Part shown: in pieces, positions 4,954 to 48,737 of the stretch
Layout of the letters: every line of letters starts with the position of its first letter
Numbering within the stretch: the first letter of the stretch is position 1
Source: Bacteroidia bacterium
Lineage (GTDB): Bacteria; Bacteroidota; Bacteroidia; Flavobacteriales_E; Vicingaceae
Assembly: GCA_030426475.1 (NCBI GenBank)
Contig: JAUHYR010000002.1
Location: forward strand, 1-64,000
DNA length: 64,000 nt
Direction: 5' to 3'
Program-made: the position numbers and the translations under genes
Notes under the pieces: generated by a model
What the model was told of the DNA's origin: nothing
Database searches by the model: none
What the model saw: only the letters and a program-made list of their open reading frames with translations

Positions 4954-4967
4954 TAACAACAAAAAAA

Positions 4968-4997: not shown

Positions 4998-5006
4998 CCG
5001 AAAATT

Positions 5007-5014: not shown

Positions 5015-5020
5015 AAAATT

Positions 5021-5242: not shown

Positions 5243-5270
5243 CAAAGTTAAACAGTATTAACAATTTATA

Positions 5271-5298
5271 ACGGAAACTACTATAGTTTCCGTTTTTT
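5271..5298 (+). terminator. Intrinsic terminator after the DUF2795 gene
   Basis: ACGGAAACTA and TAGTTTCCGT form a perfect 10-bp stem with a 3-nt loop, followed by a T run. Confidence 0.85.
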
Positions 5299-5305
5299 AT
5301 TTTAT

Positions 5306-5313
5306 TACATTTG
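5306..5313 (+). promoter_or_regulatory. -7 box TACATTTG for secA
   Basis: An exact TAnnTTTG match, 24 nt before the secA ATG and directly after the terminator T run. The -33 position would fall in the terminator stem, and no clean TTG is seen there. Confidence 0.5.
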
Positions 5314-5337
5314 CAACCCTTATATTAAGATTAAAAC

Positions 5338-8300: not shown

Positions 8301-8658
8301 GGTTAGAAATGCCTATTTGGAACAAAAAGATCCATTATTGATTTATAAGTTTGAAGCGTTTAATTTATTTAAACAAGTACTTGAAAAAATAAATAAAGAT
8401 GCAGCTTCATTCCTTATGAAAGGAAATTTGCCTAACCAAGAAAACACTCAGGTAACTCAAGCTCCACAGCACAGCGATTCTGACCTTAAAAAACTACAAG
8501 CTTCAAGAGAAGATGTAACTTCACCTCAACAACAAGGTGCTCCAAATCAGGAAAAACCAAAAATTGTTCAGCCTGTTAGAGTAGAGAAAAAAGTGGGAAG
8601 AAACGAGCCATGCCCTTGTGGAAGCGGCAAAAAATATAAGCAGTGTCACGGTAAGTAA
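5338..8658 (+). CDS. secA: Preprotein translocase ATPase SecA
   Basis: 1106 residues. SecA is the motor that drives unfolded preproteins through SecYEG. The Walker A motif GEGKT is at residues about 197-201, the DEAD-type box [16 protein letters not shown] starts near 300, and the second helicase domain shows [11 protein letters not shown] and [14 protein letters not shown]. The C-terminal zinc-binding tail [13 protein letters not shown] begins at C1092. The protein is about 200 residues longer than E. coli SecA. Much of the extra length is a Lys/Glu-rich stretch around residues 340-500, as is usual in Bacteroidota. All type A and B cargo in this window would need it for the first membrane crossing. 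Confidence 0.97.
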
Positions 8659-8664
8659 TCTTAA

Positions 8665-9879: not shown

Positions 9880-10192
9880 GGTTGTTTTTATGTCGGTCGC
9901 TATCTCGCTCGGTTTTATTCAATAGATTTTTAGTTAGTTCCTTTTCTAAATCAATTCCGGTTTGGTTTGCCAAACACATTAGTACAAATAACACATCGGC
10001 CATTTCTTGTCCCAAATCTTTTTGCTTGTCCGATTCTTTTTCGGATTGTTCGCCATATCTCCTTGCAATAATACGAGCTACCTCTCCTACTTCTTCAGTA
10101 AGCATTGCCATATTCGTTAGCTCATTAAAATATCTAACTCCAATTGTTTTTATCCAAATATCTACTTTTTGTTGCGCTTCAGTTATTGTCAT
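9869..10192 (-). CDS. MazG-like nucleotide pyrophosphohydrolase
   Basis: 107 residues. The paired acidic motifs LTEEVGEVARI (EExxE) and LGQEMADVLFVLM (ExxD) are the Mg2+ site of the all-alpha NTP-PPase (MazG/dUTPase-like) superfamily. The length fits single-domain members that hydrolyse non-canonical dNTPs to monophosphates in the cytoplasm. It is the last gene of the rsgA-dtd-lipoprotein-mazG run: its start overlaps the lipoprotein gene by 14 nt, and its stop overlaps the convergent MFS gene. Confidence 0.88.
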   Translation of the reverse strand: MTITEAQQKVDIWIKTIGVRYFNELTNMAMLTEEVGEVARIIARRYGEQSEKESDKQKDLGQEMADVLFVLMCLANQTGIDLEKELTKNLLNKTERDSDRHKNNPKL

Positions 10193-10544
10193 CTTTTACT
10201 AGTTTTTCTTCAATAGTATTAAAATCACAGTCTTGTAATTTATAATGAAAAATTGAATCATTTAATTCTAAAATTTCTAAAGAATAGTCTTTTCCCTTTC
10301 CAAAATCAAAATAGATTGCCTTGCCATCTAAAATAGATTCATAGGTTGTTTTATAACCATTTACATTTATTTTATTTTCTTCAGAAAAAATCAGGTGAAG
10401 TGCGTCAGGGTTATTTTGAAGTTCGCCATTAATCGATCTACTTTCTAATACCCACTTGCCCTGTAGTTTTTCAGAAATACTATTTTTTGTTTTACATGAA
10501 AACAGCATAAAAAATAAGGGTATATATAAAATAATTATTCTCAT
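10179..10544 (-). CDS. Small lipoprotein, lipocalin-like start
   Basis: 121 residues. A short hydrophobic N-terminus ends in the lipobox LFSC, so it is a lipoprotein exported by Sec. The mature part begins KLQGKWVLESRSING, similar to the first strand of lipocalin-like domains of Bacteroidota lipoproteins, followed by alternating strand-like stretches. No ligand or enzyme site is visible. Its ATG overlaps the dtd TGA (ATGA), and its end overlaps the mazG start by 14 nt, so it is embedded in a tightly packed operon of quality-control enzymes although it acts in the envelope. Confidence 0.75.
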   Translation of the reverse strand: MRIIILYIPLFFMLFSCKTKNSISEKLQGKWVLESRSINGELQNNPDALHLIFSEENKINVNGYKTTYESILDGKAIYFDFGKGKDYSLEILELNDSIFHYKLQDCDFNTIEEKLVKDDNN

Positions 10545-10990
10545 TCCTTGTTTTTGGAGTCGATAATAATAGTAACAGGTCCGTCATTTATTAAGCTCAC
10601 CTTCATATCTGCACCAAACTCTCCTGTTTCAACTTTTAGGTTATATTCTTTTATTTTAGTAATAAATTTTTCATACAAAGGAATTGCAATATCCGGCTTA
10701 GCTGCTTTAATAAAAGAAGGTCTGTTGCCCTTTTTAGTAGAAGCATGCAATGTAAATTGGCTAACGATTAACAACTCACCTTTTATATCTAACACGCTCA
10801 AATTCATCAATCCATTTTTATCACTAAAAACTCGCATGTTTAATATCTTGTTTGACAGCCAATCAATGTCGTCCATAGCATCTGATTCTTCAATACCCAG
10901 TAAAATCAGTAAACCATTTCTAATAGAACCAATGATTTTTTCATTTACCTTTACCTTACTTTCTTTTACTCTTTGTATAACAACTCTCAA
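10541..10990 (-). CDS. dtd: D-aminoacyl-tRNA deacylase
   Basis: 149 residues, full length for the family. DTD removes D-amino acids (and glycine misloaded on tRNA-Ala) from tRNA. The chirality-checking motifs SQFTLHAS (near residue 78) and NDGPVTI (near residue 134, the Gly-cisPro site) are both present. The start is TTG at 10990, directly after the rsgA TAA; the family's conserved N-terminus MR(x)VIQRV fits only this start. It is in an operon with rsgA upstream and the small lipoprotein downstream (4-nt overlap). Confidence 0.95.
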   Translation of the reverse strand: MRVVIQRVKESKVKVNEKIIGSIRNGLLILLGIEESDAMDDIDWLSNKILNMRVFSDKNGLMNLSVLDIKGELLIVSQFTLHASTKKGNRPSFIKAAKPDIAIPLYEKFITKIKEYNLKVETGEFGADMKVSLINDGPVTIIIDSKNKE

Positions 10991-11905
10991 TTATCTATAA
11001 TTTTCTTGTTCGTCTAAATAAATGGTTAAGTAATTCTCATATCGAAAAAAAGCAATTTCTCCTTTTTCAACAGCTTCTTTAACAGCACAGTTTGGCTCAT
11101 TAATATGTTTACAATTATGAAATTTACAGTTTACCATGTGTTTTCTAAATTCAGGAAAATAACCCGCCAATTCTTCTTTTTCAATATCATCAATCAAACC
11201 AAACCCTTTAATCCCGGGAGTATCTATAATAAACCCTCCAAAGCTTAAAGGAAACATTTCAGCAAATGTAGTGGTATGTTTTCCGCTTTGATTATAGTCA
11301 GAAATTTCAGATGTTTTCAAGCCTAAACCCGGCTCTATTTTATTAATGAAAGTTGACTTCCCCACACCTGAATTTCCGGTTAAAAGAGATGTTTTATTTT
11401 TCAATAATTTTTTAAAGGTATCTATATCGTCTTTCTCAATATATGTTTCAAAGCATTGGTAGCCTAACTCACTATAAACCGATTTCAATTCATCCAATTG
11501 CTCCATTTCCTTTTTTCCGTAAACATCTATTTTATTAAAAATAATCACTGCCGGAACATGAAACATTTCGGTTGTGAGCAAAAACCTATCAATAAACCGG
11601 GTAAAGGTTTTGGGCTGTTTCAATGTAACTATAATAATTGCCTGATCTAAATTAGAGGCAATTATGTGTTTTCGTTTAGATAAGTTGGTCGATTTTCTAA
11701 CAATATAATTTTTTCGTTCTTCTATTTCCGCAATTACCCATTCACCACCTTTTTCATTAACTTCAACTATATCACCAACTGCCACAGGGTTTGTAGCATC
11801 AATATCATCAAGACGAATTTTCCCCACCACTCTACATTTGAGCATTTCATTATTTGCTAAAACAGTGTACCAACTTCCAGTAGATTTAATTACAACACCT
11901 TTCAT
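10991..11905 (-). CDS. rsgA: Ribosome small-subunit-dependent GTPase A
   Basis: 304 residues. RsgA is a circularly permuted GTPase that checks late 30S maturation. An OB-fold comes first (residues 1-70), then the GTPase motifs in permuted order: NKIDV (G4), LLTGNSGVGKSTFIN (P-loop, G1) and DTPG (G3). The C-terminal zinc site is CKFHNCKHINEPNC. It is the first gene of the rsgA-dtd-lipoprotein-mazG operon. A TATTTTTG box on the minus strand at 11946-11939 is its likely promoter, back to back with that of gldA. Confidence 0.95.
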   Translation of the reverse strand: MKGVVIKSTGSWYTVLANNEMLKCRVVGKIRLDDIDATNPVAVGDIVEVNEKGGEWVIAEIEERKNYIVRKSTNLSKRKHIIASNLDQAIIIVTLKQPKTFTRFIDRFLLTTEMFHVPAVIIFNKIDVYGKKEMEQLDELKSVYSELGYQCFETYIEKDDIDTFKKLLKNKTSLLTGNSGVGKSTFINKIEPGLGLKTSEISDYNQSGKHTTTFAEMFPLSFGGFIIDTPGIKGFGLIDDIEKEELAGYFPEFRKHMVNCKFHNCKHINEPNCAVKEAVEKGEIAFFRYENYLTIYLDEQENYR

Positions 11906-23544: not shown

Positions 23545-25374
23545 ATGAAAAAACATTTACTCTTAACCTTACCTGCTATTTTACTTTTAATACTAACTGT
23601 TGATTCTTTTTCGCAGCAATGTGTTACTATTAATTGTCAGTCAAATATAACTACCAATGCAGACTCAAATGCTTGCGGTTCAATCATAAATTATAATACG
23701 CCCTTTGGTTTTGATTCTTGTTTAGTTGGCAGCCAGACTTTTAATTATACTGGTCAAATAGATACATTTATAGTTCCTACTGGAGTAACTACTTTAACAA
23801 TTGAAGCTACAGGCGCTGCTGGTGGTAATTCAACATGGGCGACATTGCGTCCGGGTGGAAAAGGCTCTTATATAAAGGGTGATGTATCAGTAAGCTCTGG
23901 TGACACAATTTTAGTATTAGTTGGACAACAAGGAGAAAGTGCTGCTGTTGGTGGTGGTGGTGGTGGGTCTTTCACTGCGCTAATAAACAATACTCCATTA
24001 GTCATTGCCGGAGGAGGTGGAGGAGCTTCTTCTGATCAGTCTGGGGTGAATGCTTCAATTACAAATAACGGTACCAATTGTTCTGGAAATTTAATTCTAG
24101 GAGGAACTTCAGGTAACGGAGGAGCGGCATGTGGTCCAAATGGAAATAGTGGAGGAGCTGGTGGTGGATTTCTTACTGATGGTGCTAGTTCTAATACAAA
24201 TGGACCATCAACAGTAGGAGGTTTTGGTGGAAAGTCGTTTACTAATGGAGGAACCGGTGGCATACCTGGTAGATTAGATAATGCATGTACACAAGATGCA
24301 TTTGGCGGGTTTGGTGGAGGCGGAAGTACCTCATGTAATACCGTTGGCGGAGGCGGAGGCGGAGGCTATTCAGGAGGTGCAGGTGGTCCTCACATCAGCC
24401 AATGTGGTGCTTCACAAAGATTTGGTGGTGGTGGTGGTGGTTCCTTTAATGCGGGAACTAATACTATTGATAGTGTGGGAGTTGGAACTGGTAATGGTTT
24501 AGTCGTAATTACTTGGAATGGAGGAACAATAGCTGCCACTCAAACTTCTGGTTTGCCAAGTGGGTCTTTATTTCCTATCGGTACAACTACAAATTCTTTC
24601 TTTGTCACTAACGGAACGCAATCAGACTCCTGTACTTTTACAGTAACAGTTATTGACAGTATAGTTCCAATATTGGTTTGTCCATCAAATGTTGTAACAT
24701 GTAATTCTATTGTTAATGGAATATCACCAAGTTATAATGATAATTGTAATGTTACTGTAAGCTATACATTATCAGGCGCAACCGTTGGCTCAGGAAATAA
24801 TGATGCTAGTGGAACTACATTTAATTATGGTATTACTACCGTGCAGTATTTGGTGTCAGATTCATCCGGAAATTCAGATACATGTTCCTTTACAGTTACC
24901 AATAATAGTGTTGACACATCAGTTACAAGAAACTTATCTACATTTACATCAAACCAAACTGGCGCTTCATACCAGTGGGTATCATGTCCTTCAGGAACTC
25001 CAATAATTGGAGACACTAATATGGTATTTACTGCTACAACCAATGGTTCTTATGCTGTTATTGTTAGTAATGGCCTTTGTACTGATACCTCCGCTTGCTT
25101 TACAATAAACAATGTAGGCATTCAAACTATTGACTTTGGAAATGTTTCTATTTACCCTAATCCAACCAATGGATTGGTTACGATAGATATGGGAGACTAT
25201 GACGAGACTGTCAACTATACTATTACTTCAATAGATGGAAGAACAGTAGCTCAGAAAACAAATATTGCAGACAACAAAATAACTATTGATTTAGGTAATG
25301 AAAGTAAAGGAGTTTATTTACTTAAACTTTACAACACCAAATCATCTAGTGTATTTAGAATAAATAGACTATAG
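23545..25374 (+). CDS. T9SS type A cargo: HYR/glycine-rich protein with a second HYR domain (copy 2)
   Basis: 609 residues with signal peptide MKKHLLLTLPAILLLILTV. The layout is as in copy 1: the first half of HYR (NITTNADSNACGSIINY), a glycine-rich domain at about residues 60-330 with ILVLVGQQGE and VIAGGGGGASSD, and the HYR closing half (TSGLPSGSLFPIGTTTNSF). An additional complete HYR-type domain follows (PILVCPSNVVTCNSIV through SDTCSFTVT), then the Ig-like segment and the type A sorting domain (IYPNPTNGLVTIDMG). The extra HYR explains its greater length. Long GGA/GGT runs leave other frames open, but those are not genes. Expected location: cell surface. Confidence 0.85.
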   Translation: MKKHLLLTLPAILLLILTVDSFSQQCVTINCQSNITTNADSNACGSIINYNTPFGFDSCLVGSQTFNYTGQIDTFIVPTGVTTLTIEATGAAGGNSTWATLRPGGKGSYIKGDVSVSSGDTILVLVGQQGESAAVGGGGGGSFTALINNTPLVIAGGGGGASSDQSGVNASITNNGTNCSGNLILGGTSGNGGAACGPNGNSGGAGGGFLTDGASSNTNGPSTVGGFGGKSFTNGGTGGIPGRLDNACTQDAFGGFGGGGSTSCNTVGGGGGGGYSGGAGGPHISQCGASQRFGGGGGGSFNAGTNTIDSVGVGTGNGLVVITWNGGTIAATQTSGLPSGSLFPIGTTTNSFFVTNGTQSDSCTFTVTVIDSIVPILVCPSNVVTCNSIVNGISPSYNDNCNVTVSYTLSGATVGSGNNDASGTTFNYGITTVQYLVSDSSGNSDTCSFTVTNNSVDTSVTRNLSTFTSNQTGASYQWVSCPSGTPIIGDTNMVFTATTNGSYAVIVSNGLCTDTSACFTINNVGIQTIDFGNVSIYPNPTNGLVTIDMGDYDETVNYTITSIDGRTVAQKTNIADNKITIDLGNESKGVYLLKLYNTKSSSVFRINRL

Positions 25375-34917: not shown

Positions 34918-36219
34918 ATGAATAGTTACCTTAGACGGATGAATTTTTTACTCACTCTTCTTTTCATTTTTGGATTCACTCAATTTGCCTTTTCTCAAGA
35001 TTATTATGATGAAAATATTGGTAAGAATATGGATTATATATATTCTTCTAACATTAAAACTGTTCAACTCTATAATAGTGATTATGATTTATCAGAACCT
35101 ATTATAAAATTAAATAGCGGACAAACACTCACACTTGAATTTGACGAACTTACGAGCAGCTACAAACAATATACTTTCTCCATTCATCACTGTAATTCAG
35201 ACTGGACAATCTCAAATTTATCTCCTGCAGAATACATGACCGGCCCAACTCAAGAATTTATATCTGACTATGATTTATCCTATAATACAGCTATTGCATA
35301 CGTACATTACTCACAAAAAATTCCTTCCTATAACAGTGGTTTTAAAATTGGGGGAAATTATCTAGTAATGGTTCATGAAAATTTCAATGAAGAAAATCCA
35401 ATTTTGGTAAAACGCTTTTTTGTTAATGAAGATATAGTTAAAGTAGATGCTTATTCTACTAAAGCAACACAAGTAAGTAAAATGAACTCCCATCAACAAG
35501 TAAATGTTACGGTAACCATAGATAACGAATCTACTATACAACCCCTAGAACAATTAAAAATTGTTATCCAGCAAAATGGAAGATGGGATAATATTATAGA
35601 GGATATCAAACCTACTTTTATAAGAGGAAATCAAATTATATATGATAATCCAATGAATAAATACTTTGAAGCCGGCAATGAGTTTAGATTCTTAAATATA
35701 AAAGATATGAGATATAAAGACATTAATATTGAAAGTATAACATTTGATGGAAACAATGTGCCAAAAATTATAATTAAACCGGATTTACCTAGAGCAAATC
35801 AACAATACCTAACCTATCAGGATATTAATGGAAAATTATTAATAAAGAACGATAAAGGAAATGATGACGATGTAGAAAGTGATTATTGTAAAGTCAAATT
35901 CATTTTAAAATCTCAAAAAATATCTAATGGAGCTATTTACATATATGGTGAAATCTCAAGCTGGACATATCTTCCTGAATTTGCAATGAATTATAATGAA
36001 GAAACCAATTCTTACGAAAAAGAACTTTTATTAAAGCAGGGTTATTACAATTACTTATACTCTTTTAAGCCCATTGATGAGAATAAAGGAGAAGTTTCAG
36101 TAATAGAAGGCTCATATAAAGAAACAGAAAACACTTACAAGGTTATGATTTACCAAAAAAAACCAAACCAAACAGATGTTTTAATTGGAATTGGGATAGT
36201 AAATTCAGTTAGAAATTAA
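34918..36219 (+). CDS. Type IX secretion system plug protein (DUF5103)
   Basis: 433 residues with a signal peptide ending near FAFSQ (a second possible start is M8). The domain pattern is DUF5103: a beta-rich N-domain (LNSGQTLTLEFDELTSSYKQ, TFSIHHCNSDWTISNLSPAEYM) and a C-terminal beta-sandwich (GAIYIYGEISSWTY, GYYNYLYSF). DUF5103 proteins were identified as the Plug that seals the periplasmic end of the SprA translocon in T9SS. This gene therefore adds a secretion component to a window full of CTD cargo. It shares its stop region (TTAA) with the convergent glycosyltransferase gene. Confidence 0.88.
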   Translation: MNSYLRRMNFLLTLLFIFGFTQFAFSQDYYDENIGKNMDYIYSSNIKTVQLYNSDYDLSEPIIKLNSGQTLTLEFDELTSSYKQYTFSIHHCNSDWTISNLSPAEYMTGPTQEFISDYDLSYNTAIAYVHYSQKIPSYNSGFKIGGNYLVMVHENFNEENPILVKRFFVNEDIVKVDAYSTKATQVSKMNSHQQVNVTVTIDNESTIQPLEQLKIVIQQNGRWDNIIEDIKPTFIRGNQIIYDNPMNKYFEAGNEFRFLNIKDMRYKDINIESITFDGNNVPKIIIKPDLPRANQQYLTYQDINGKLLIKNDKGNDDDVESDYCKVKFILKSQKISNGAIYIYGEISSWTYLPEFAMNYNEETNSYEKELLLKQGYYNYLYSFKPIDENKGEVSVIEGSYKETENTYKVMIYQKKPNQTDVLIGIGIVNSVRN

Positions 36220-38102: not shown

Positions 38103-38157
38103 TTTAGGCAACCATTTTTTTTATTAACCGTCTTAAGATTTAAAACCACTAACTACT

Positions 38158-41100
38158 ATGCGAAAAATTATATTTAGTCTTATTGCAATTTCTGCATTAT
38201 TCCTTTTTAGCAAATCATCTCATGCTTCCCATATTCCCGGAGCCAATATTTCTTATAAGTGTATTGGTCCAAATCAGTACGAAATAACACTATGGACAAT
38301 TGTGAGATGTCCAAGTTCAAACCCTACCGGAGCATACTTATATATATCAAATGACTGTGGAATTCCTAATACAGGTGTAGTATTTGGAACAGGTTTTACC
38401 ACTACATACACATATGCAAACTATGCTTATGGTTATATACAAAACGATCCGTTACAACATAATGTTAATGTTAGTCAGATATGTAATCAAATGATTAACA
38501 GTACAACCTGTAATGGAGGAACTATTAATGGAGTAAGAATGACCGTATACAAAGGTATTGTTACTTTACCAGGAGGATGTAATTCATGGCACTTTAGTTG
38601 GAACTCTTGTTGTAGAGATAATACTACTAATGTAACAGGACAACCGGGTATTTGGATTGAAACAACAATGAATTCTGCTACCTTCCCTTGCGATAATTCT
38701 CCGTTTATTAATGCTACACCTATTCCATATGCATGTGCAAATCAACAAAACTGTTATAATTTAAATGTTACTGACCCTGATGGAGATAGCCTTAGATTTG
38801 CTTTAGTGGCAGGCCAATCAAGCGCAGGAGGAACGCCCCCAACGGGTACTCCGATACCATACAAAGCCGGTTATTCACCTACTGCGCCAATACCGGGCGT
38901 TACTATTAACCCTAATAACGGTACTATCTGTTTTAATGCAGCTGCGGGAAATTATGTTTTTGCAGTAATGATATACTCCTATGATAAAACTACCGGACAG
39001 CTAAAAGGTACCATGATTTATGATTTTCAAGTGATTTTAATTGCCTGTACTAACAATACCCCTCAGCCACCGTCAGGAGGTGTTAGTAATGCAACAGGAG
39101 GAATGTCTATTGTAAATCCAACTACGGTACAAATTTGTGAAGGTAGTACAGGTTGTTTTGACGTAGTATTTAATGACCCTGATCCCGGGAATACTTTGTA
39201 TGCTTGGTCAACAGCAACTACAGTTCTTCCTGGCATTAATATGACAACTTTAGGAACTAATCCTCTAACAGTAAGATTTTGTTATACTGCTCCTTATGGA
39301 AACACAGGTTTAAACTCCTTTAATATAACTGTTACTGATAGTGTTTGCCCTATTTATGCTCAAACATCATTTGGGGTTGACTTAAGAATAGTTAGTGGTA
39401 TTACTGCAAATGCTGGTCCGGATGTTAATGTCGGATGTAACGGTACAACCAACTTAACAGTTACACCTGGTGGTGGAACCGGTATTTACTCCTATCAATG
39501 GAGTGGGTCAGGATCCGGAACAAATCAATCGTTAAATAATGTTGGACCCGGAACTTATTATATAACAGTTAGTGATAATGGAACTACTTGCTCTGCAACT
39601 GACACTGTTGTTGTAACAGGTGGAATACCTCCTATTCCGGCTTTCAATGCAACCAGCGTTTGTCCGGGAGTTGCAATGCAGTTTAATGATGCTTCAGTAG
39701 CCCAAGGGGCAGCTTTTATTAATGGATGGCAATGGGATATTTTAAATAATGGAACTATTGATTATACAACTCAAAACCCAACCCATACTTTTCCTGCTCC
39801 GGGAACCTATGCGGTTAAATTAATTGTTACTGACAATACCGGCTGTAAAGACTCTATTGTTCAAAATGTTACAGTTTATGACAATCCGAGTGCTAACTTT
39901 AATTCTGTTTCGGTTTGTGCCGGAACTCCTATGAACCTTAACGATGCTTCAAATATTCCTTCGGGAACTATTACAGGATGGCAGTGGGATATTTTAAATG
40001 ACGGAAGCATTGAATATAACACTCAAAATGCATCTCATACTTTTGCTACAGCAGGTAATTATAATGTAAAACTTATTGTAACTAGTGGCAACGGATGTAA
40101 AGACAGCATTGTTTTACCGGTTACTGTCATTAATAACCCTACTGCAAATTTCTCATCTACTACTGTTTGTGAAGGAAGTCCTACTAATTTCAATGATTTA
40201 TCAACCCCTCTAGGAATTAGTAACTGGAGTTGGGACATAAATAATGACGGAACAGTTGAGTATTCTACTCAAAACCCAAATCATACTTTTCCGGCTGCAG
40301 GTAATTATAATGTTGAGTTAGTTGTAAGTGCAGGAGCATGTAAAGACAGTATTGTTATTCCTGTTACTGTTAACCCATTGCCGGCTCCAAGCTTTACATT
40401 TACATCTCAATGTGAAGGTACGGCTATAGCGTTTAATAATACATCTGTTATAGCTAGTGGATCTATTTCAAGTTATACTTGGGACTTTGGAGACAATAGT
40501 CCAACTAGTTCTACAACTAGTCCTAACCACACATATACAGCTTGTGGAAATTACACCGTGAAACTTTATGCTACCTCTACCAACGGATGTACTGACTCTG
40601 TTTCTCAAAACGTACAAGTTTACTGTTTACCAACAGCAGCTTTTACAGCTGACACCGTTTGTATTGGAAATCAAACTTGCTTTTATGATGGATCTAATGT
40701 TATAGGAAGCAACATCACTCAATGGCAATGGAATTTTGGTAACGGAGGAACTTCTGCTATTGGCAGTCCTTGTCATAATTATGCAACAGCTAATGAAATT
40801 CCAGGATATGCAGTTAAGTTGGTAGTTACTTCAAACCAAGGATGTAAGGATTCCATTACTCATTTAACACCTGTTTATTTACAGCCTACTGCAAACTTTA
40901 CAGCAACTAATGAGTGCTTAAATGACTCTGTAGTATTCACAAATACTTCAACAAGTGCAACTAATTATGTATGGTATTATGGAAATGCTAATAATAGTTC
41001 AAATGGACAAGCTACTCATAAATACAAATATAGTTCCGATGGTTCTTACATTGTTAAACTAGTTGCTTCAACAGGAAAAGGTTGTAGTGACTCCATTACT

Positions 41101-42429
41101 AAAACTATTGTGGTTCATCCTATTCCAACAGCTGATTTTAACTTTACAAATGTATGTGACGGACTTTCGCTACCATTAAATGATTTATCATTAGTTAGTA
41201 GCGGAAATATTACCAACTGGGATTGGAATTATGGTGACCTTACTCCAAATGGAAACACCCAAAATACAAGCCACACTTACGGAAACTGTGGTCCATATAA
41301 CGTAACTTTAACTGTTACATCTGATAGCGGATGTACCGATATAATTACAAAACAAGTAGAAGTTTATCCAAATCCTGTTCCCGCATTTACTCCTACAGAT
41401 GTTTGTTTAGGAACTCCTTCACAGTTTACTGATTTAACTACTGTTAATTGTGGAACTACAAACGGAAATATTATTAATTGGAACTGGAATTTTGAAGGTA
41501 CAGGAAATTCGTCTGCTCAAAACCCTAACCATTCATTTAATCAGGCAGGTGTATTTAATACCACATTAATTGTTACTACTTCAAATGGTTGTGTTGATTC
41601 AATTACCAGCCCGGTTACTGTGTATGCTAATCCGGATGTAAACTTTACCTCAGATATTAATGATGGCTGTACTCCGGTTTGTGTTAATTTTATAAACAAC
41701 AGTAATAGCCCTGTTGGCGTTACCACCTATAATTGGGATTTCGGAAATGGTAACGGAACAATAGGAAATAACCCTTCACATTGTTATGACAATAACAGCC
41801 TTTCTGCAAAATCGTTCGATGTTACTGTAATGGCTATTACTAACTACGGTACAAACCAGTGTACCACAGTAGTAAGCCAAGCAAATATGATAAGTGTTTA
41901 TCCTCTTCCGTCAGCTGACTTTACATGGAACCCGGAAATATTAAGCGCAATATATCAACCGGAAGCTAACTTTACAGACTTATCTCAAGGTGCATCCGTT
42001 TGGCTTTGGAATTTTGGTGACGGAGGAACTTCAAATTCACAAAATCCTTCTTATCAGTATGGTGACTCAGGAACCTATGTTATATGGTTGAATATAGAAA
42101 ATCAATATGGATGTAAGGATAGCATATGGAAAACCATAAGAGTTGAGCCTGAATATGCATTATATATTCCTAATACATTTACCCCTGATGGTGATGGGAA
42201 TAATGACTTTTTCTTTACTAAAGGATATGGTATTGAAGAGCAAAGTATGTTGATTTTTGACCGATGGGGAGAAGTTATTTTTGAAGGCTATCAAGTAGAC
42301 TCTAAATGGGACGGAAAAATAAAAGATAAAAGTGTAGGAAAAACTGACGTCTATACATATAAGATAGAAACAAAGGATGTAAAAGGAGAAAGCCATACTT
42401 ACATTGGTAAGGTTACACTACTTAAATAA
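38158..42429 (+). CDS. Giant PKD-repeat adhesin with T9SS type B sorting domain (adhesin 1)
   Basis: 1423 residues. The signal peptide ends near SSHAS. The N-domain (IPGANISYKCIGPNQYEITL onwards, about 300 residues, Cys-rich) is the type seen in Bacteroidota cell-surface proteins of this family. I count ten PKD repeats between about residues 490 and 1340, each with a WxWDF/YGD core and a GCKDSI-type end. The C-terminus NTFTPDGDGNNDFFFTKG, FDRWGEVIFEG and WDGKIK is the gliding-motility-associated type B sorting domain, so it should be secreted and anchored by T9SS. PKD repeats usually act as spacers or binding modules in adhesins. Confidence 0.9.
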   Translation: MRKIIFSLIAISALFLFSKSSHASHIPGANISYKCIGPNQYEITLWTIVRCPSSNPTGAYLYISNDCGIPNTGVVFGTGFTTTYTYANYAYGYIQNDPLQHNVNVSQICNQMINSTTCNGGTINGVRMTVYKGIVTLPGGCNSWHFSWNSCCRDNTTNVTGQPGIWIETTMNSATFPCDNSPFINATPIPYACANQQNCYNLNVTDPDGDSLRFALVAGQSSAGGTPPTGTPIPYKAGYSPTAPIPGVTINPNNGTICFNAAAGNYVFAVMIYSYDKTTGQLKGTMIYDFQVILIACTNNTPQPPSGGVSNATGGMSIVNPTTVQICEGSTGCFDVVFNDPDPGNTLYAWSTATTVLPGINMTTLGTNPLTVRFCYTAPYGNTGLNSFNITVTDSVCPIYAQTSFGVDLRIVSGITANAGPDVNVGCNGTTNLTVTPGGGTGIYSYQWSGSGSGTNQSLNNVGPGTYYITVSDNGTTCSATDTVVVTGGIPPIPAFNATSVCPGVAMQFNDASVAQGAAFINGWQWDILNNGTIDYTTQNPTHTFPAPGTYAVKLIVTDNTGCKDSIVQNVTVYDNPSANFNSVSVCAGTPMNLNDASNIPSGTITGWQWDILNDGSIEYNTQNASHTFATAGNYNVKLIVTSGNGCKDSIVLPVTVINNPTANFSSTTVCEGSPTNFNDLSTPLGISNWSWDINNDGTVEYSTQNPNHTFPAAGNYNVELVVSAGACKDSIVIPVTVNPLPAPSFTFTSQCEGTAIAFNNTSVIASGSISSYTWDFGDNSPTSSTTSPNHTYTACGNYTVKLYATSTNGCTDSVSQNVQVYCLPTAAFTADTVCIGNQTCFYDGSNVIGSNITQWQWNFGNGGTSAIGSPCHNYATANEIPGYAVKLVVTSNQGCKDSITHLTPVYLQPTANFTATNECLNDSVVFTNTSTSATNYVWYYGNANNSSNGQATHKYKYSSDGSYIVKLVASTGKGCSDSITKTIVVHPIPTADFNFTNVCDGLSLPLNDLSLVSSGNITNWDWNYGDLTPNGNTQNTSHTYGNCGPYNVTLTVTSDSGCTDIITKQVEVYPNPVPAFTPTDVCLGTPSQFTDLTTVNCGTTNGNIINWNWNFEGTGNSSAQNPNHSFNQAGVFNTTLIVTTSNGCVDSITSPVTVYANPDVNFTSDINDGCTPVCVNFINNSNSPVGVTTYNWDFGNGNGTIGNNPSHCYDNNSLSAKSFDVTVMAITNYGTNQCTTVVSQANMISVYPLPSADFTWNPEILSAIYQPEANFTDLSQGASVWLWNFGDGGTSNSQNPSYQYGDSGTYVIWLNIENQYGCKDSIWKTIRVEPEYALYIPNTFTPDGDGNNDFFFTKGYGIEEQSMLIFDRWGEVIFEGYQVDSKWDGKIKDKSVGKTDVYTYKIETKDVKGESHTYIGKVTLLK

Positions 42430-42454
42430 TTACAAACTAACTTATTAAAAAAGG

Positions 42455-42478
42455 AAGGTTGCTTCGGCAACCTTTTTT
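42455..42478 (+). terminator. UUCG-loop terminator after adhesin 1
   Basis: AAGGTTGC, TTCG, GCAACCTT then T: an 8-bp stem capped with the extra-stable UUCG tetraloop. Confidence 0.9.
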
Positions 42479-42481
42479 ATA

Positions 42482-42489
42482 TACATTCG
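42482..42489 (+). promoter_or_regulatory. -7 box TACATTCG for adhesin 2
   Basis: The TAnnTTCG variant, 20 nt before the ATG at 42510, starting just after the terminator T run. The same box precedes gldA. Confidence 0.5.
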
Positions 42490-42509
42490 TCTTGCTCTAA
42501 ATCCCTACT

Positions 42510-44996
42510 ATGAGAAAATTTACACTTGCACTTATCTTTTTGTTCATAAATGGGTTAGTTATATGTCAGCAAAATGTATTAGTAATTGATTATAACAATT
42601 CGTTTTCTAGTGACCAACAAAACAATGGAAGCCAAATCTACAATAGATTAGTAGCTACACAAACCAGTGTTACTAGAGTTGCTGCCATTCCGGCTACAAT
42701 AAACCCTGCTACTTATCAGCAAGTTTGGATTTTTGGAAATACAGGACTTCCTGTACCTGCTACAATGAATCCAATTGTAAACTATATGAATGCTGGGGGA
42801 GCTGTTTATTTTCAATCTGAGGTAAGTTGTTGTAATAATCAAGCTGCTTTTTTAGATGCTTTAATTAATAATACCGTAAGTGCTGGAGGTTTAATTACTC
42901 ACAATATTACTCAAGGACCATACTACCAAACTATTTCAAATACGCCATGTAGCCCGCTTACTACTTATGGAGCTGCTGAAAGACCTTTTGTTGGTACGCC
43001 TGCTGTTAACGTTTTATTTCAATTAAATACTTTTTGTAGTGCAACAAATGCCGGAGATGTTGTTGGAGTTCAATTTAGAAATTGTGATATGATTTCCGGT
43101 CAAGGTGCTTTAATTGGTATCGGAGATTTTAATGTTTTCCCTCAATCCGGTGCATGTGGAACAGTGGGGATTTTGGGAACACCAAATAGACTTCCACTTA
43201 TTGATATGATTGCAAATTTGCTTCCAAACCTATTAAACTGCAATACTTCTTCTCAACCCACTTTTGATATTAAAGATACGATAGTTTGTGGTAATCCTAT
43301 TGTTTTTACTTCACCTTTAATAAGTCCTGGATATAACTATTTGTGGTCAAATGGAGCAACAACCAGCTCTACTACCATTAATACTTCAGGAATACATTGG
43401 TTAAGAGTAGAATTAGCGCCCGGATGTTTTGTGACAGATAGTTTTACAATTACCTATAATAGTTCAACTACAATAAACGTTAATGATCCTTCTATTTGTG
43501 CAGGACAAACTGCAACTATATCTGCAACACCCAACCCTACTGGAGGAAGCTATAGTTGGGCTCCAACGGGAGATACAACAGCCACTATTTCAGTTAATCC
43601 AGGAGTTACCACCAATTATATTGTCACCTATTCACTTAATGGCTGTATTGTAAGAGATACTGCTACTGTAAATGTTAACCCACTTCCAAATACTGATTTT
43701 AGTTTTACGAATATGTGTCATGGGTTTGCAATACCTCTAAATGATATATCCAATATTTTATCAGGGGCAATCGTTGGTTGGAATTGGAGTTTTGGGGATG
43801 GTTCTCCAAATGAAAACTTACAAAACTCTAATCATCTTTATAATGGTTGTGGAACATATAATGTTACTTTAACAACAACTTCTGATAGTGGTTGTGCATC
43901 AACAATAACAAAAGCTGTAGAAGTTTTCCCATTACCGCAAGCTAATTTCTCAGCAACTGAAGTTTGTCATGGAACAGCCACACAGTTTACCGATTTAAGT
44001 ACAGTAAGTTGTGGTTCTACAAATGGAACTATTGCGAATTGGGATTGGGATTTTGGTGATGTTAATGCCTCCTCAACGCAAAATCCAACCCATAACTACG
44101 CTACATTTGGAAATTACAATTCAACTCTAGTAGTTACAAGTAACAATGGTTGCAAAGATTCCATTACTCTGCCGATTAATGTTTATGACAATCCTCCTGC
44201 TGATTTTGTATCTGACACGAATGGCGGGTGTGCACCCGTATGTGTAACATTAACTGCAAATGGTGGTGGAACCCCTGTATCCGGAATGTCATATCTATGG
44301 AACTATGGAGACGATTCAAATGGTTCTGGAATTAACTCAACTCATTGCTTTCAAAATACTGGATTAGTTACTAAATATTTCAATGTAACTCTTACTACTA
44401 TTATGAACTATGGTACTAAACAGTGTACAACAGTTACTACTAAAAATAATTTTATTTCTGCTTATCCTCAACCTATTGCAGAATTTGACTGGAGTCCTGC
44501 TTCATTAAATATCTTGTTTTCTCCGGAAGCTAAATTTACCGATAATTCATTAGGAGGTGCCTATCAATGGTATTGGGATTTTGGTGATGGAAGCACATCA
44601 ACCTATCAAAATCCTTCACATTTATATCTTGATTCAGGAAATTATACCGTTTGGTTATATATTGAAACGCAATTTGGTTGCAAAGACAGTATATGGAAAA
44701 AATTAAGAGTTGAGCCTGAATTTGCGATTTATATACCAAATACTTTTACTCCCGATAAAGACGGTGTTAATGATTATTTTACTTTTAAAGGGTTTGGATT
44801 AGAAGAAGCAACTATGATGATTTTTGACCGATGGGGAGAACTAGTTTATGAAGCTGATGGTTTAGATGCTAAATGGGATGGAAAAATAAAAGGACAAGAA
44901 ATCGGTAAAACAGACATTTATATTTATCGTATTGAATTTAAAAATGTAAAAGGCGATTACCAAACATATATTGGTAAAGTTACAATACTTAGATAA
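42510..44996 (+). CDS. PKD adhesin with Rossmann-like N-module, T9SS type B (adhesin 2)
   Basis: 828 residues. The signal peptide ends near LVICQ. Residues about 20-245 form a module beginning QQNVLVIDYNNSFSSDQ, then YQQVWIFGN and MNAGGAVYFQSEVSCCNN, which looks like a GATase/Rossmann-type alpha-beta fold; its activity is unknown. A segment with YLWSNGATTSSTTINTSG and one Ig-like repeat follow, then four PKD repeats. The end is NTFTPDKDGVNDYFTFKG, FDRWGELVYEA and WDGKIKG, a type B sorting domain. The N-module is nearly the same in adhesin 3, and the four PKDs match the last four of adhesin 1. Confidence 0.88.
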   Translation: MRKFTLALIFLFINGLVICQQNVLVIDYNNSFSSDQQNNGSQIYNRLVATQTSVTRVAAIPATINPATYQQVWIFGNTGLPVPATMNPIVNYMNAGGAVYFQSEVSCCNNQAAFLDALINNTVSAGGLITHNITQGPYYQTISNTPCSPLTTYGAAERPFVGTPAVNVLFQLNTFCSATNAGDVVGVQFRNCDMISGQGALIGIGDFNVFPQSGACGTVGILGTPNRLPLIDMIANLLPNLLNCNTSSQPTFDIKDTIVCGNPIVFTSPLISPGYNYLWSNGATTSSTTINTSGIHWLRVELAPGCFVTDSFTITYNSSTTINVNDPSICAGQTATISATPNPTGGSYSWAPTGDTTATISVNPGVTTNYIVTYSLNGCIVRDTATVNVNPLPNTDFSFTNMCHGFAIPLNDISNILSGAIVGWNWSFGDGSPNENLQNSNHLYNGCGTYNVTLTTTSDSGCASTITKAVEVFPLPQANFSATEVCHGTATQFTDLSTVSCGSTNGTIANWDWDFGDVNASSTQNPTHNYATFGNYNSTLVVTSNNGCKDSITLPINVYDNPPADFVSDTNGGCAPVCVTLTANGGGTPVSGMSYLWNYGDDSNGSGINSTHCFQNTGLVTKYFNVTLTTIMNYGTKQCTTVTTKNNFISAYPQPIAEFDWSPASLNILFSPEAKFTDNSLGGAYQWYWDFGDGSTSTYQNPSHLYLDSGNYTVWLYIETQFGCKDSIWKKLRVEPEFAIYIPNTFTPDKDGVNDYFTFKGFGLEEATMMIFDRWGELVYEADGLDAKWDGKIKGQEIGKTDIYIYRIEFKNVKGDYQTYIGKVTILR

Positions 44997-45020
44997 TCAT
45001 AACTTATTAAATATTAGTAC

Positions 45021-45046
45021 AAAAGGTTGCTTCGGCAACCTTTTTT
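45021..45046 (+). terminator. UUCG-loop terminator after adhesin 2
   Basis: AAAAGGTTGC, TTCG, GCAACCTTTT: a 10-bp stem and T run, nearly identical to that after adhesin 1. An earlier in-frame ATG at 45027 for the next gene lies inside this hairpin, which argues for the start at 45081. Confidence 0.9.
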
Positions 45047-45049
45047 GCT

Positions 45050-45057
45050 TAAATTCG
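45050..45057 (+). promoter_or_regulatory. -7 box TAAATTCG for adhesin 3
   Basis: The TAnnTTCG variant, 23 nt before the ATG at 45081, in the same position after a UUCG terminator as the box of adhesin 2. Confidence 0.5.
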
Positions 45058-45080
45058 TCATTCAACTAAACCCCTTATTT

Positions 45081-48000
45081 ATGAGAAAGCTACTTCTTAC
45101 CTATATCTTACTGGCTATAAGTGGATTAATTTTTTGTCAGCAAAATGTATTAGTTATTGACTATAACAATGCATTTTCAAGTGATCAACAAAACAACGGT
45201 AGCCAAATATATAATCGGCTAGTCGCCACTCAAACAAGCGTTACAAGAGTAGCCGCTATACCGGCTACAATAAATCCTGCTACGTACCAGCAAGTTTGGA
45301 TATTTGGTAATATGGGAGCTCCTTCTGCTGCAATTTTAAATCCGGTGGTCAATTACATGAATGCAGGTGGTGCAGTTTATGTTCAATCAGAGGTAAGTTG
45401 TTGTAATAACCAAGCAGCTTATTTAGACGCGCTAATTAATGCTACTGTAACAGCTGGTGGATCAATCACACATAATGTAACTCAAGGACCTTATTATCAA
45501 ACCGTATCTAATACTCCCTGTACTCAAATCACTACTTATGGAGCTGCAGAAAGACCATTCTTAGGTACTCCCGCTGCTAATATTCTATTTCAATTAAATA
45601 ATGTTTGTGGAAATACAAGGGTCGGTGATGTAGTTGGAGTTCAATTTCGAAACTGTGATATGATTTCAGGTCAGGGAGCATTAATCGGGACTGGTGATTT
45701 TAACATTTTTCCTCAATCCGGTGCTTGCGGTACTGTAGGAATTTTAGGAACACCGAATAGACTTCCGCTTATTGATATGATTGCAAACCTACTTCCAAAC
45801 CTTTTAAATTGTAACACTTCTACTCAACCAACATTTGATATTAGAGATACTGTTGTTTGTGGAGGACCTTTAACATATACATCCCCATTAATAAGTCCTG
45901 GATACAACTATTTATGGTCAAATAACGCAACTACAACTTCTACTACTATTAACACATCCGGAAAGCATTGGTTAAGAATAGAAATATCACCCGGGTGTTT
46001 TATTACAGATACTTTTAATATTACTTATAATGGTTCTACTGCCGTAACTGTAAATGATACTGCTGTATGTGCAGGACAGTCAGTTACCCTAACCGCTACT
46101 CCTGCTACAAGTGGTGGTACATATAGTTGGACTCCGGGAGGAGCTACAACTCAAAGTATTACTGTAACACCGGGAGCTACAACAAATTATATAGTCACAT
46201 ACACACTAGGAGGATGTACCGGAACAGATACTGGAACAGTAACCATTAACCCTATTCCAACAGTAAATGTTAATAATACTACTATTTGTCCGGGTCAAAC
46301 TGCCACTTTAACAGCTACTCCAAGCGTTACGGGAGGAACTTATAGTTGGACACCAGGAGGAATGACAACCCAAACAATAAATGTTACTCCAGGCGCTACA
46401 ACCACTTATAATGTTACATATACGCTTAATGGGTGTACAGGGACTGGAAGTGGAACTGTTACAATTAGTCCGGCACCAACCCTTACAGTTAATAACGCTA
46501 CTATTTGTGCAGGGCAGCAAGCAACCATAACAGCAACACCCAGTGTGACCGGTGGCACATATAGTTGGACACCGGGAGGAATGACAACCCAGACAATAAA
46601 TGTTAGCCCATTAAGTACTACTACCTATACTATTACTTATGACCTTAATAGTTGTATAGCTACAGATTCTGGAATTGTAACGGTTAATCCGGTACCAACT
46701 CCCGGATTTACTTTTACTTCACAGTGTCAAGGAACAGCTATTAATTTCACAAATACTTCGGCTATTGCTAGCGGAACAATGAGTTACACATGGGACTTTG
46801 GTGACAATTCTCCAACAAGTTCAAATGTTAATCCAAGTCATATTTATACTACTTGCGGAACTTACTCAGTAAAATTAATTACTACTTCAAATAACGGATG
46901 TATTGACTCTGTTTCGCAAAATGTACAAGTTTACTGTTTACCAACGGCTAATTTTAACTTCACAAGTGTTTGTTTAGGTAATCAAACTTGTTTTACAGAT
47001 AGTTCTTATGTTACTGGCAGCACAATTAATAATTGGAGCTGGAATTTTGGGGATGGAAGCCCTGTCAATAATACCGGAAACCCTTGTCATACATATATTG
47101 CGGCAAATCAAACTCCTGGTTATTCGGTTACATTATCCATTACAACAGCTCAAGGATGTACAGGCAATATAAGTAAAAATGTACCTGTGTATGTTGTTCC
47201 AACAGCCTCTTTTAGTGTATCAAATGAGTGTTTAAACAATGCCGTAAACATTACGGATAACTCTGTAAATGCCGTAAATTATAATTGGGCTTTCGGAGAC
47301 GGAAATACTTCAAATACAACTGGAAATCAATCCCATAACTATAATGCGCCAGGAACATATAATATTCAACTTATACTCAGCTCCGGTACTTGCACCGACA
47401 CTTTTACTGCTCCTGTTACCGTTCATCCTATGCCAACCGCAGACTTTAACTTCACCAATGTATGTGATGGTTTAGTAATGCCTTTAAATGATAATTCAAA
47501 CATATCTGCCGGAAGTATTACTCAGTGGGATTGGAATTATGGTGATGTTACTCCAAATGGAAACACACAAAATACAACACACAGTTATGGAAACTGTGGA
47601 CCCTATAATGTAACATTAACGGTTACTTCTGATAGTGGATGTACTGATGCGGTAACTAAACCCGTTGAAGTTTACCCATTACCACAAGCCAATTATACTA
47701 CAACCGAAACTTGCCTTGGAACTGCAGCCCAGTTTACAGACTTAAGTAGTGTTAACTGCGGAACGACTAATGGAGCTATAACAAATTGGAATTGGACTTT
47801 TGGGGATTCATCTCCTAGCCAAGGAGCACAAAACCCTAGCTATACCTATGGAAGTTCCGGTAATTACAATTCCCAACTTGTGGTTACAAGTTCAAACGGA
47901 TGTAAAGACTCTATGGTAGTCACTGTAAATGTTTATGACAACCCTGACATTAGTTTTTCAGTTGATAAAGAAAGTGGTTGTACTCCGGTTTGTGTTAATT

Positions 48001-48737
48001 TTATTAATAATAGCAACAACCCTATTGGAACTACAACATACACATGGTCTTTAGGGGATGGCACTAATACCTCAGGAAATACACCAAGTCATTGCTACAG
48101 CAATAATAGTTTATCTGCAAAAACATTTGACGTAACTGTTGGAGCTATTACAAATTATGGAACAAAACAGTGTACGTCTAGTTTAACACAAAATGCAATG
48201 GTAACGGTTTACCCTCTTCCTATTGCAGAGTTTGATTTTTCTCCGGTAAATCCTAATGTTTTAAATGCAAATGTTGATTTTATGAATATGTCACAAGGTG
48301 GAAGTGTATGGAGTTGGAATTTTGGTGATGGAGGTACTTCGTCAAATCAAAACCCATCTCACTTATATAAAGATTCTGGAAATTACATTATATGGCTAAA
48401 CATTGAAAACTCTTATGGCTGTAAAGACAGTATTTATAAAACTATTAGAGTTGAACCGGACTTTATGCTTTATATTCCAAATACATTTACGCCTGATGGG
48501 GATAAAAACAACAATTACTTTAGTGTAAAAGGTTATGGCTATAAAAACCTTACTATGTTAATTTTTGATAGATGGGGAGAAGTAATATACGAAGGACACC
48601 AGATGGATTCTAAATGGGATGGAAGCATAAAAGGAGGAGCTATTGGAAAAACAGATGTTTATACCTATAAAATTGAAGTAGAAGATTTAAAAGGAGAAAG
48701 TCATACCTATATCGGAAAAGTGACTCTTCTCAAGTAG
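45081..48737 (+). CDS. Mosaic Ig/PKD adhesin with Rossmann-like N-module, T9SS type B (adhesin 3)
   Basis: 1218 residues from the ATG at 45081, chosen because it starts the signal peptide MRKLLLTYILLAISGLIFCQ and follows a promoter box. The N-module (residues about 20-245) is the same as in adhesin 2. Three Ig-like repeats follow (GTYSWTPGGATTQSITVTPG, TYSWTPGGMTTQTINVTPG and a third copy), then seven PKD repeats that match PKDs 4-10 of adhesin 1 in order. The end is NTFTPDGDKNNNYFSVKG, FDRWGEVIYEG and WDGSIKGG, a type B sorting domain. Expected location: cell surface, as an adhesin or biofilm protein. Confidence 0.88.
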   Translation: MRKLLLTYILLAISGLIFCQQNVLVIDYNNAFSSDQQNNGSQIYNRLVATQTSVTRVAAIPATINPATYQQVWIFGNMGAPSAAILNPVVNYMNAGGAVYVQSEVSCCNNQAAYLDALINATVTAGGSITHNVTQGPYYQTVSNTPCTQITTYGAAERPFLGTPAANILFQLNNVCGNTRVGDVVGVQFRNCDMISGQGALIGTGDFNIFPQSGACGTVGILGTPNRLPLIDMIANLLPNLLNCNTSTQPTFDIRDTVVCGGPLTYTSPLISPGYNYLWSNNATTTSTTINTSGKHWLRIEISPGCFITDTFNITYNGSTAVTVNDTAVCAGQSVTLTATPATSGGTYSWTPGGATTQSITVTPGATTNYIVTYTLGGCTGTDTGTVTINPIPTVNVNNTTICPGQTATLTATPSVTGGTYSWTPGGMTTQTINVTPGATTTYNVTYTLNGCTGTGSGTVTISPAPTLTVNNATICAGQQATITATPSVTGGTYSWTPGGMTTQTINVSPLSTTTYTITYDLNSCIATDSGIVTVNPVPTPGFTFTSQCQGTAINFTNTSAIASGTMSYTWDFGDNSPTSSNVNPSHIYTTCGTYSVKLITTSNNGCIDSVSQNVQVYCLPTANFNFTSVCLGNQTCFTDSSYVTGSTINNWSWNFGDGSPVNNTGNPCHTYIAANQTPGYSVTLSITTAQGCTGNISKNVPVYVVPTASFSVSNECLNNAVNITDNSVNAVNYNWAFGDGNTSNTTGNQSHNYNAPGTYNIQLILSSGTCTDTFTAPVTVHPMPTADFNFTNVCDGLVMPLNDNSNISAGSITQWDWNYGDVTPNGNTQNTTHSYGNCGPYNVTLTVTSDSGCTDAVTKPVEVYPLPQANYTTTETCLGTAAQFTDLSSVNCGTTNGAITNWNWTFGDSSPSQGAQNPSYTYGSSGNYNSQLVVTSSNGCKDSMVVTVNVYDNPDISFSVDKESGCTPVCVNFINNSNNPIGTTTYTWSLGDGTNTSGNTPSHCYSNNSLSAKTFDVTVGAITNYGTKQCTSSLTQNAMVTVYPLPIAEFDFSPVNPNVLNANVDFMNMSQGGSVWSWNFGDGGTSSNQNPSHLYKDSGNYIIWLNIENSYGCKDSIYKTIRVEPDFMLYIPNTFTPDGDKNNNYFSVKGYGYKNLTMLIFDRWGEVIYEGHQMDSKWDGSIKGGAIGKTDVYTYKIEVEDLKGESHTYIGKVTLLK

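What the first reader, a model, noticed from the sequence alone, without database searches (positions are those of the whole stretch)
38158..48737. Adhesin 3 is a mosaic of adhesins 1 and 2
Its N-module (about 225 residues) matches adhesin 2, while its seven PKD repeats match PKDs 4-10 of adhesin 1 one for one in order (FTFTSQC, NQTCF, NECLN, FNFTNVCDG, QFTDL, CTPVCVNF, terminal SxDF/EFD unit). The last four units plus sorting domain are common to all three. Three Ig-like repeats are new. This is modular recombination building new surface proteins in place.
Basis: partly seen in the sequence, partly recalled or inferred. Interest (0 to 1): 0.65.

Follow-up and report, generated by a model that had tools for sequence, protein, structure and literature searches.

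The report
Mosaic family of secreted surface proteins
Three neighbouring bacterial genes for large secreted surface proteins share and swap modules (interchangeable heads on one old stalk), an ordinary way of building adhesins, and each gene is preceded by the same promoter-like signal as a sigma-factor gene whose partner protein looks like the adhesins' own export tag.

Summary
A3's seven PKD units match A1 units 4-10 by position, and A3's head matches A2's (87%). But the stalk (last four PKDs plus type B sorting domain) is an old family module that relatives carry in register under other heads. A3's stalk is sister to A1 plus a fourth gene (C37), not to A1 alone. Single units disagree: unit 4 goes with A1, unit 8 with A2. 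The Ig repeats are not new; C37 has 14. Plain duplication is disfavoured (A2-A3 relative divergence: head 0.30, stalk 0.66), although a whole-stalk test does not reject it. Silent sites are saturated, so the exchanges are old. Best reading: head swap plus unit-sized conversion among co-regulated paralogues, a known kind of modularity.

A by-product is more novel. GGCAAC-N16-CGTC occurs six times in the genome: before A1, A2, A3, C37, one other secreted-type gene and an ECF sigma gene. That sigma gene is followed, 8 of 8 in this family, by a single-pass membrane protein ending in PKD plus a T9SS sorting domain: a candidate cargo-mimicking anti-sigma factor.

The parts
38107..38132 (+). GGCAAC-N16-CGTC promoter-like site of A1, 25 nt before ATG
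38158..42429 (+). A1, 1423 aa: signal peptide-like start, H1 head, linker, PKD1-10, type B CTD
38221..39387 (+). H1 head (about residues 22-410), shared with C37 (66%) and, more distantly, G011a
39637..40380 (+). A1 PKD1-3, own subgroup in the unit tree together with a C92e unit
40381..42153 (+). A1 PKD4-10 (stalk)
42154..42426 (+). A1 type B CTD (CHU_C, TIGR04131)
42456..42478 (+). 23-bp terminator-like hairpin plus T run; identical to 45024-45046; its 3' arm holds the GGCAACC of the A2 promoter-like site
42466..42491 (+). GGCAAC-N16-CGTC promoter-like site of A2
42510..44996 (+). A2, 828 aa: H2 head, linker, one Ig-like, PKD7-10, CTD
42570..43253 (+). A2 H2 head (residues 21-248)
43686..44720 (+). 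A2 PKD7-10
45024..45046 (+). second copy of the 23-bp terminator-like element
45034..45059 (+). GGCAAC-N16-CGTC promoter-like site of A3
45081..48737 (+). A3, 1218 aa from ATG: H2 head, linker, three Ig-like, PKD4-10, CTD
45141..45824 (+). A3 H2 head, 87% identical to A2
46041..46694 (+). A3 three Ig-like repeats, closest to repeats of C37
46695..46940 (+). A3 PKD4, sister to A1 PKD4 (76%), against the A1+C37 grouping of the other units
47682..47942 (+). A3 PKD8, sister to A2 PKD8 (64%)
47943..48734 (+). A3 PKD9-10 and CTD, sister to A1+C37

Best explanation
A1, A2 and A3 are paralogous type B T9SS cargo proteins, presumably surface adhesins. They belong to a small family in this genome that also includes C37 and the contig-end fragment C92e. 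Each complete member has an exchangeable N-terminal head (H1 or H2), a variable middle (Ig-like or extra PKD repeats) and an old conserved stalk (PKD units in fixed order plus the sorting domain). In this lineage an H2 head became joined to the stalk. A2 and A3 then shared or exchanged that head after their stalks had diverged, and single PKD units were also exchanged or converted between neighbours (unit 4 A1-A3, unit 8 A2-A3). The exchanges are old (silent sites saturated). Shown: module homologies, positional register, conflicting trees, divergence ratio. Inferred: homologous recombination or gene conversion as the mechanism, and that H2-plus-stalk is the derived state. Each of the three genes has its own promoter-like site, signal-like start and sorting domain, so all are probably expressed, probably from an ECF sigma factor whose gene carries the same site.
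For: Unit tree groups by position. Site patterns differ between units: A1/A3/C37 triple, permutation p at the floor of 2000 permutations (0.0005); A1/A3/A2 triple p = 0.001. Reciprocal AU rejections: unit 8 against A3 with A1/C37, p = 0.009; units 9+10+CTD against A3 with A2, p = 0.022. A2-A3 distance relative to outside sequences: head 0.30 (0.21-0.40), stalk 0.66 (0.58-0.76). Ig repeats of A3 nearest to C37. In the proteins compared, 10 H2-headed genes of relatives have other stalks or are cut off, and the full stalk sits under several other heads. Four-fold sites saturated. Shared promoter-like sites.
Against: On the whole of units 7-CTD the A2+A3 grouping is not rejected (AU p = 0.26, 0.225). 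Units 8 and 4 were singled out after seeing the identities, so their p-values are optimistic (unit 8 times five segments is about 0.05). Clustering of site likelihood differences along the stalk is only suggestive (p = 0.077). Units are 80-90 residues long and saturated at silent sites, so no breakpoint can be fixed at DNA level. No congener with the locus was found; flanking genes lie on separate contigs in nearly all relatives.
Confidence: 0.66

Rival explanations
1. Plain tandem duplication: A2 and A3 are whole-gene sisters, A2 lost Ig copies and PKD4-6, and the head simply evolves more slowly than the stalk.
For: Head and upstream DNA of A2 and A3 are alike and both junctions carry the same 23-bp element. 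A2+A3 not rejected on the whole stalk (AU p = 0.26). Heads are generally better conserved between genera (about 60%) than stalks (about 45%).
Against: After scaling each module by its own divergence from outside sequences, head (0.30) and stalk (0.66) still differ with disjoint intervals. Units 9+10+CTD reject A2+A3 (p = 0.022).
Confidence: 0.2
2. The derived mosaics are A1 and C37, not A3: the stalk originally bore H2 and the A1/C37 ancestor acquired H1.
For: On the stalk tree (((A1,C37),A3),(A2,C92e)) one head change suffices.
Against: G011a, of another genus, has H1 on the full stalk (H1 380 bits, stalk 456 bits). No H2-plus-stalk was seen outside this genome among the proteins compared. 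The A2-A3 head split looks younger than the stalk split.
Confidence: 0.15
3. One unequal crossover in the array made A2 from the A3 head and the A1 tail, which would explain its missing PKD4-6 and the repeated terminator.
For: Order of genes, identical 23-bp junction elements, a different 3' flank after A3.
Against: It predicts A2 and A1 stalks as sisters; that is rejected (AU p = 2e-10 on 7-CTD, 2e-4 on 9+10+CTD).
Confidence: 0.04
4. No recombination inside the stalk: each PKD position has its own function, and unit-level conflicts are rate noise or convergence.
For: Positions 8, 9 and 10 keep their identity across genera, so position-specific selection exists. Units are short.
Against: Heterogeneity of site patterns between units and bootstrap support of 99 for A2_8+A3_8 and for A1_4+A3_4.
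Confidence: 0.25

Closest known systems
Gingipain/HagA modular adhesin regions of Porphyromonas gingivalis (PMC5266723; abstract and section 20 read)
   Same: T9SS-exported surface proteins whose adhesin domains are combined differently in paralogous genes; the paper describes combinatorial modularity and a high level of recombination in Kgp.
   Different: There: cleaved adhesin/DUF2436 domains, strain-level exchange, identical repeats. Here: PKD/Ig-like domains, type B CTD, one genome, old divergence.
SprB and other type B CTD proteins of Flavobacterium johnsoniae (PMC9143113, passages read)
   Same: Type B sorting domain on a large repetitive surface adhesin.
   Different: SprB has an adjacent PorP-like partner gene (sprF); no PorP-like gene was recognised among the neighbours scanned with Pfam. 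Motility role untested here.
PorXY-SigP and PorA signalling of P. gingivalis (PMC4800418, PMC7712824; passages read)
   Same: An ECF sigma factor linked to T9SS; a CTD-bearing protein (PorA) acts upstream of it; sigP is reported there as self-regulated.
   Different: SigP acts with PorX and on machinery genes, and its proposed motif is different (C/T-AAA-type). Here the regulon candidates are cargo genes and the CTD-bearing protein is encoded directly after the sigma gene with a membrane span.

Membership tests
Type B T9SS cargo (TIGR04131 / CHU_C) | C-terminal type B sorting domain above the curated cut-off | tested here: met
   A1 48.2, A2 53.6, A3 48.0 bits against a cut-off of 35; PF13585 50.7, 60.8, 52.4 against 27
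Type B T9SS cargo (TIGR04131 / CHU_C) | Signal peptide for export | tested here: inconclusive
   Hydrophobic N-termini seen in the translations; no predictor run
Type B T9SS cargo (TIGR04131 / CHU_C) | Secretion and surface location shown | not testable with these tools
   Draft genome in 139 contigs known only as sequence here; experiment needed
PKD-repeat proteins (PF18911) | PKD_4 matches above cut-off, repeated | tested here: met
   10, 4 and 7 stretches in A1, A2, A3
Mosaic (recombinant) paralogues | Segments of one gene with significantly different nearest relatives | tested here: met
   Unit 8 versus units 9+10+CTD, reciprocal AU rejections; segments chosen after inspection
Mosaic (recombinant) paralogues | Breakpoints or conversion tracts at DNA level | tested here: not met
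   Silent sites saturated; no high-identity tract in any pair
Adhesin | Binding to a surface or ligand | not testable with these tools
   Inference from architecture only
ECF sigma factor (C30 gene) | Sigma-70 regions 2 and 4 and ECF family model above cut-off | tested here: met
   PF04542, PF08281, PF07638 above cut-off; TIGR02937 96.9 against 42.9
Anti-sigma factor (gene after the ECF sigma) | Encoded next to the sigma gene, cytoplasmic N-domain, single membrane span, extracytoplasmic sensor | tested here: met
   8 of 8: start overlaps the sigma stop, one hydrophobic span near residues 43-68; topology inferred from hydropathy
Anti-sigma factor (gene after the ECF sigma) | Match to a curated anti-sigma family | tested here: not met
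   Own copy only: Pfam finds PKD and CHU_C but no anti-sigma domain; NCBIfam none
Anti-sigma factor (gene after the ECF sigma) | Binding and inhibition of the sigma factor | not testable with these tools
   No experiment

The most novel reading that the evidence does not exclude
The adhesin paralogues are target genes of an ECF sigma factor held by an inner-membrane anti-sigma factor whose periplasmic part imitates a T9SS cargo (PKD plus type B sorting domain). The cell would thereby read export capacity or cargo traffic and set adhesin production accordingly, with the sigma gene and the mosaic adhesin genes sharing the promoter GGCAAC-N16-CGTC. The gene pair is widespread in Bacteroidia.
Probability: 0.45. 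Interest if true: 0.78.

Novelty: new member of a known kind. Interest (0 to 1): 0.45.

Why it matters
The mosaic shows how these bacteria diversify large surface proteins: a conserved export stalk is kept while heads and single repeat units are exchanged. The promoter and anti-sigma observation would matter more. How Bacteroidota match production of huge T9SS cargo to export capacity is, to my knowledge (recalled), open, and a membrane protein wearing a cargo-like sorting domain next to the sigma factor of cargo genes would make that directly testable.

Tried and rejected
Synteny: the flanking metallo-beta-lactamase-fold gene and glycosyltransferase gene were sought in 41 genomes each; by their listed places they lie on separate contigs in nearly all relatives (both on C1 in G017, some 360 kb apart), so no syntenic locus was found and module gain or loss could not be dated. 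Recent gene conversion: rejected, silent sites saturated. A2 as a simple A3-A1 crossover product: rejected. Silent-cassette antigenic variation: considered and set aside, because all three genes keep a promoter-like site, a start, a signal-like N-terminus and a sorting domain. Fold of the H2 head: two AlphaFold models from 9 and 13 sequences have mean pLDDT 53 and 52. Foldseek's best match is the IFT52 N-terminal domain at E = 0.008, then ThuA-like and flavodoxin folds, with no sequence match in the PDB. At most this hints at a Rossmann-like first half and I build nothing on it. Named relatives: one genome-contig scan with the H2 head gave 7 loci, all Flavobacteriales/Bacteroidetes MAGs incl. 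Vicingaceae bacterium KA17; no close relative of the window's own genome.
Full report
WHAT IS THERE. The window is contig C112 of a 2.87-Mb genome in 139 contigs. All carry PKD_4 repeats (10, 4 and 7 stretches) and a type B T9SS sorting domain above the curated cut-offs.

THE MODULES. A2 and A3 share head H2: 87% identity over residues 21-248, falling to 78% over 249-312 and 59% over the following Ig-like repeat. DNA similarity ends near codon 332 and the best single change point of protein identity is after residue 299. A1 has another head, H1. The own genome holds further members: C37 (2214 aa; H1 head, 14 Ig-like repeats, PKDs, the same stalk), C92e (a gene cut off by a contig end; PKDs and stalk) and C32 (H2 head, other repeats, other CTD).

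POSITIONAL REGISTER. I cut the PKD units by hand and built one tree of all units of A1, A2, A3, C37 and C92e plus units 7-10 of three genes of other genera. Positions 4, 5, 6, 8, 9 and 10 are each one clade. Positions 8, 9 and 10 include the other genera, so the register is older than these genes. Position 7 is one clade for this genome, without the outside copies. But one-for-one matching of A1 and A3 is what any duplication of such a stalk gives, and is not by itself evidence of mosaicism.

IS IT A MOSAIC? Nearest relatives of A3 by unit (identity): 4 A1 76%, 5 C37 58% (A1 52%), 6 C92e 53% (A1 41%), 7 A1 82%, 8 A2 64% (A1 52%), 9 A1 67% (C37 65%), 10 A1 68%, CTD A1 75%. Site patterns among A1, A3 and C37 differ between units (permutation p 0.0005, the floor): in unit 4 A1=A3 18 against A1=C37 4; over all units 66 against 129. 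For A1, A3 and A2, unit 8 has A3=A2 17 against A1=A3 8; over all units 42 against 89 (p 0.001). Tree tests: for unit 8, A3 with A1+C37 is rejected (AU 0.009); for units 9+10+CTD, A3 with A2 is rejected (0.022); for all of 7-CTD neither is (0.225 for A2+A3; 0.26 with two more outside sequences). A1+A3 without C37 is rejected (0.0098). The segments were chosen after seeing the identities, so these values are optimistic. Separately, the A2-A3 distance divided by the mean distance to outside sequences is 0.30 (0.21-0.40) for the head and 0.66 (0.58-0.76) for the stalk. The outside sets differ, since none of the outside genes compared carries both modules. Plain duplication with a slow head does not explain this unless rates changed within the family.

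AGE. Identity at four-fold sites is 44% against 39% expected for the A2-A3 head; over whole stalks it is 32-44% in all ten pairs. Nothing here is recent.

DIRECTION. With profile models of the two heads and of the stalk, 10 H2-headed genes of relatives were compared: none has the full stalk (two have no stalk match at all, one of them cut by a contig end). The full stalk was found in genes of G003, G011, G016, G023, G031 and G034 under several other heads; one of them, G011a, has an H1 head. These genes were fetched because they matched A2 or carried the promoter-like site, so this is not a census. It favours H2-on-stalk as the derived join in this lineage. The H2 head is uncommon: 7 of 395 class genomes match, own genome included.

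THE IG REPEATS. A3's three are closest to those of C37 (A3 second repeat 85% to C37 third; A3 first 74%, A3 third 74%), while A2's single one is 57-59% to A3's. They are not new.

JUNCTIONS AND PROMOTERS. The A1-A2 and A2-A3 gaps share the 23-bp hairpin AGGTTGCTTCGGCAACCTTTTTT (window: 2 matches, 0 expected); its 16-bp core occurs only there in the genome. Its right arm contains GGCAACC; CGTC follows 16 nt after the GGCAAC. The same GGCAAC-N16-CGTC lies 25, 18 and 21 nt before the ATGs of A1, A2 and A3. Genome-wide it occurs 6 times: A1, A2, A3, C37, C30:29223 (before an ECF sigma gene, ATG 16 nt on) and C6:45601 (before an open ORF whose start, SHLLGGEITW..., resembles H1 heads by eye; no Pfam match). 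That the two boxes resemble ECF promoters is recalled, not computed. C32, C83, C92b and C92a lack even a looser form.

RELATIVES AND CONTROL. Of 41 genomes I took all 55 matches of 10 relatives (chosen because they hold heads or stalks, not at random) plus the own C6 and C30 sites. Of these 57 loci, 51 have an ORF starting within 300 nt, 22 of those end in a type B CTD and 8 are ECF sigma genes (7 relatives and own; the sigma label of the 7 rests on their alignment with the own copy). Some are orthologous pairs and not independent. With spacing 20 instead of 16 the same 11 genomes have 16 matches against 61; 2 of 16 have an ORF start downstream (ATG only, at least 100 aa), none has a CTD or sigma factor.

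THE SIGMA FACTOR'S NEIGHBOUR. In 8 of 8 such sigma loci the next gene overlaps the sigma stop (by 4-20 nt) and encodes 416-434 aa with a conserved N-terminus (..EVPYNEAHWAEM..), one hydrophobic span near residues 43-68 and a type B CTD (Pfam for the own copy: PKD_4 and CHU_C just above cut-off). It has no curated anti-sigma match. The N-domain is found in 126 of 295 class genomes. Of the 30 loci returned, 30 have an ECF-sigma-like ORF on the same strand, 21 have the CTD in the same ORF and 19 have GGCAAC-N15-17-CGTC near the sigma start (no control for the last number). I infer an anti-sigma factor whose periplasmic part imitates cargo. Function is untested.

LITERATURE. Modular exchange of adhesin domains in T9SS proteins is known (PMC5266723, abstract and section 20). 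A CTD protein acting upstream of an ECF sigma factor is known (PorA, PMC7712824, passages), with a different sigma motif and target set (PMC4800418, passages). Searches for an anti-sigma factor with a type B CTD or PKD and for this promoter listed no paper that, by title and start of abstract, describes it; this covers the open PMC library only.

VERDICT. The mosaic observation is largely right and its meaning is more modest and older than claimed: a new member of a known kind. The regulatory arrangement found on the way is the more novel lead.

Noticed in passing
G000:C30 (L191:143-1955): ECF sigma gene preceded by the same GGCAAC-N16-CGTC site as the adhesin genes and followed by a single-pass membrane protein ending in PKD plus type B T9SS sorting domain; conserved 8 of 8 in the family loci examined.
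   Followed up: yes
42456-42478 and 45024-45046: Terminator-like hairpin of one gene overlaps the -35-like box of the next gene's promoter-like site; identical at both junctions, found nowhere else in the genome.
   Followed up: partly
L041 (C37), 4392-11033, minus strand: 14 Ig-like repeats with a three-repeat super-period (73-73-75 residues) in part of the array, i.e. a higher-order tandem array.
   Followed up: partly
L041 about 4350-4391 and L042 about 11225-11266: C37 and C92e share about 43 identical non-coding bases just after the stop, with the palindrome TTATTTATGTTAACATAAATAA that occurs only at these two places, although their silent sites are saturated.
   Followed up: partly
34918-36219: T9SS plug-protein domain gene (PF17116) about 2 kb upstream of the adhesin array.
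   Followed up: no
23545-25374: Secreted protein with HYR domain and type A sorting tail (Por_Secre_tail).
   Followed up: no
L191:2068-4095: Collagen-like GPTGPTGANG repeat protein genes directly downstream of the sigma/anti-sigma-like pair.
   Followed up: no
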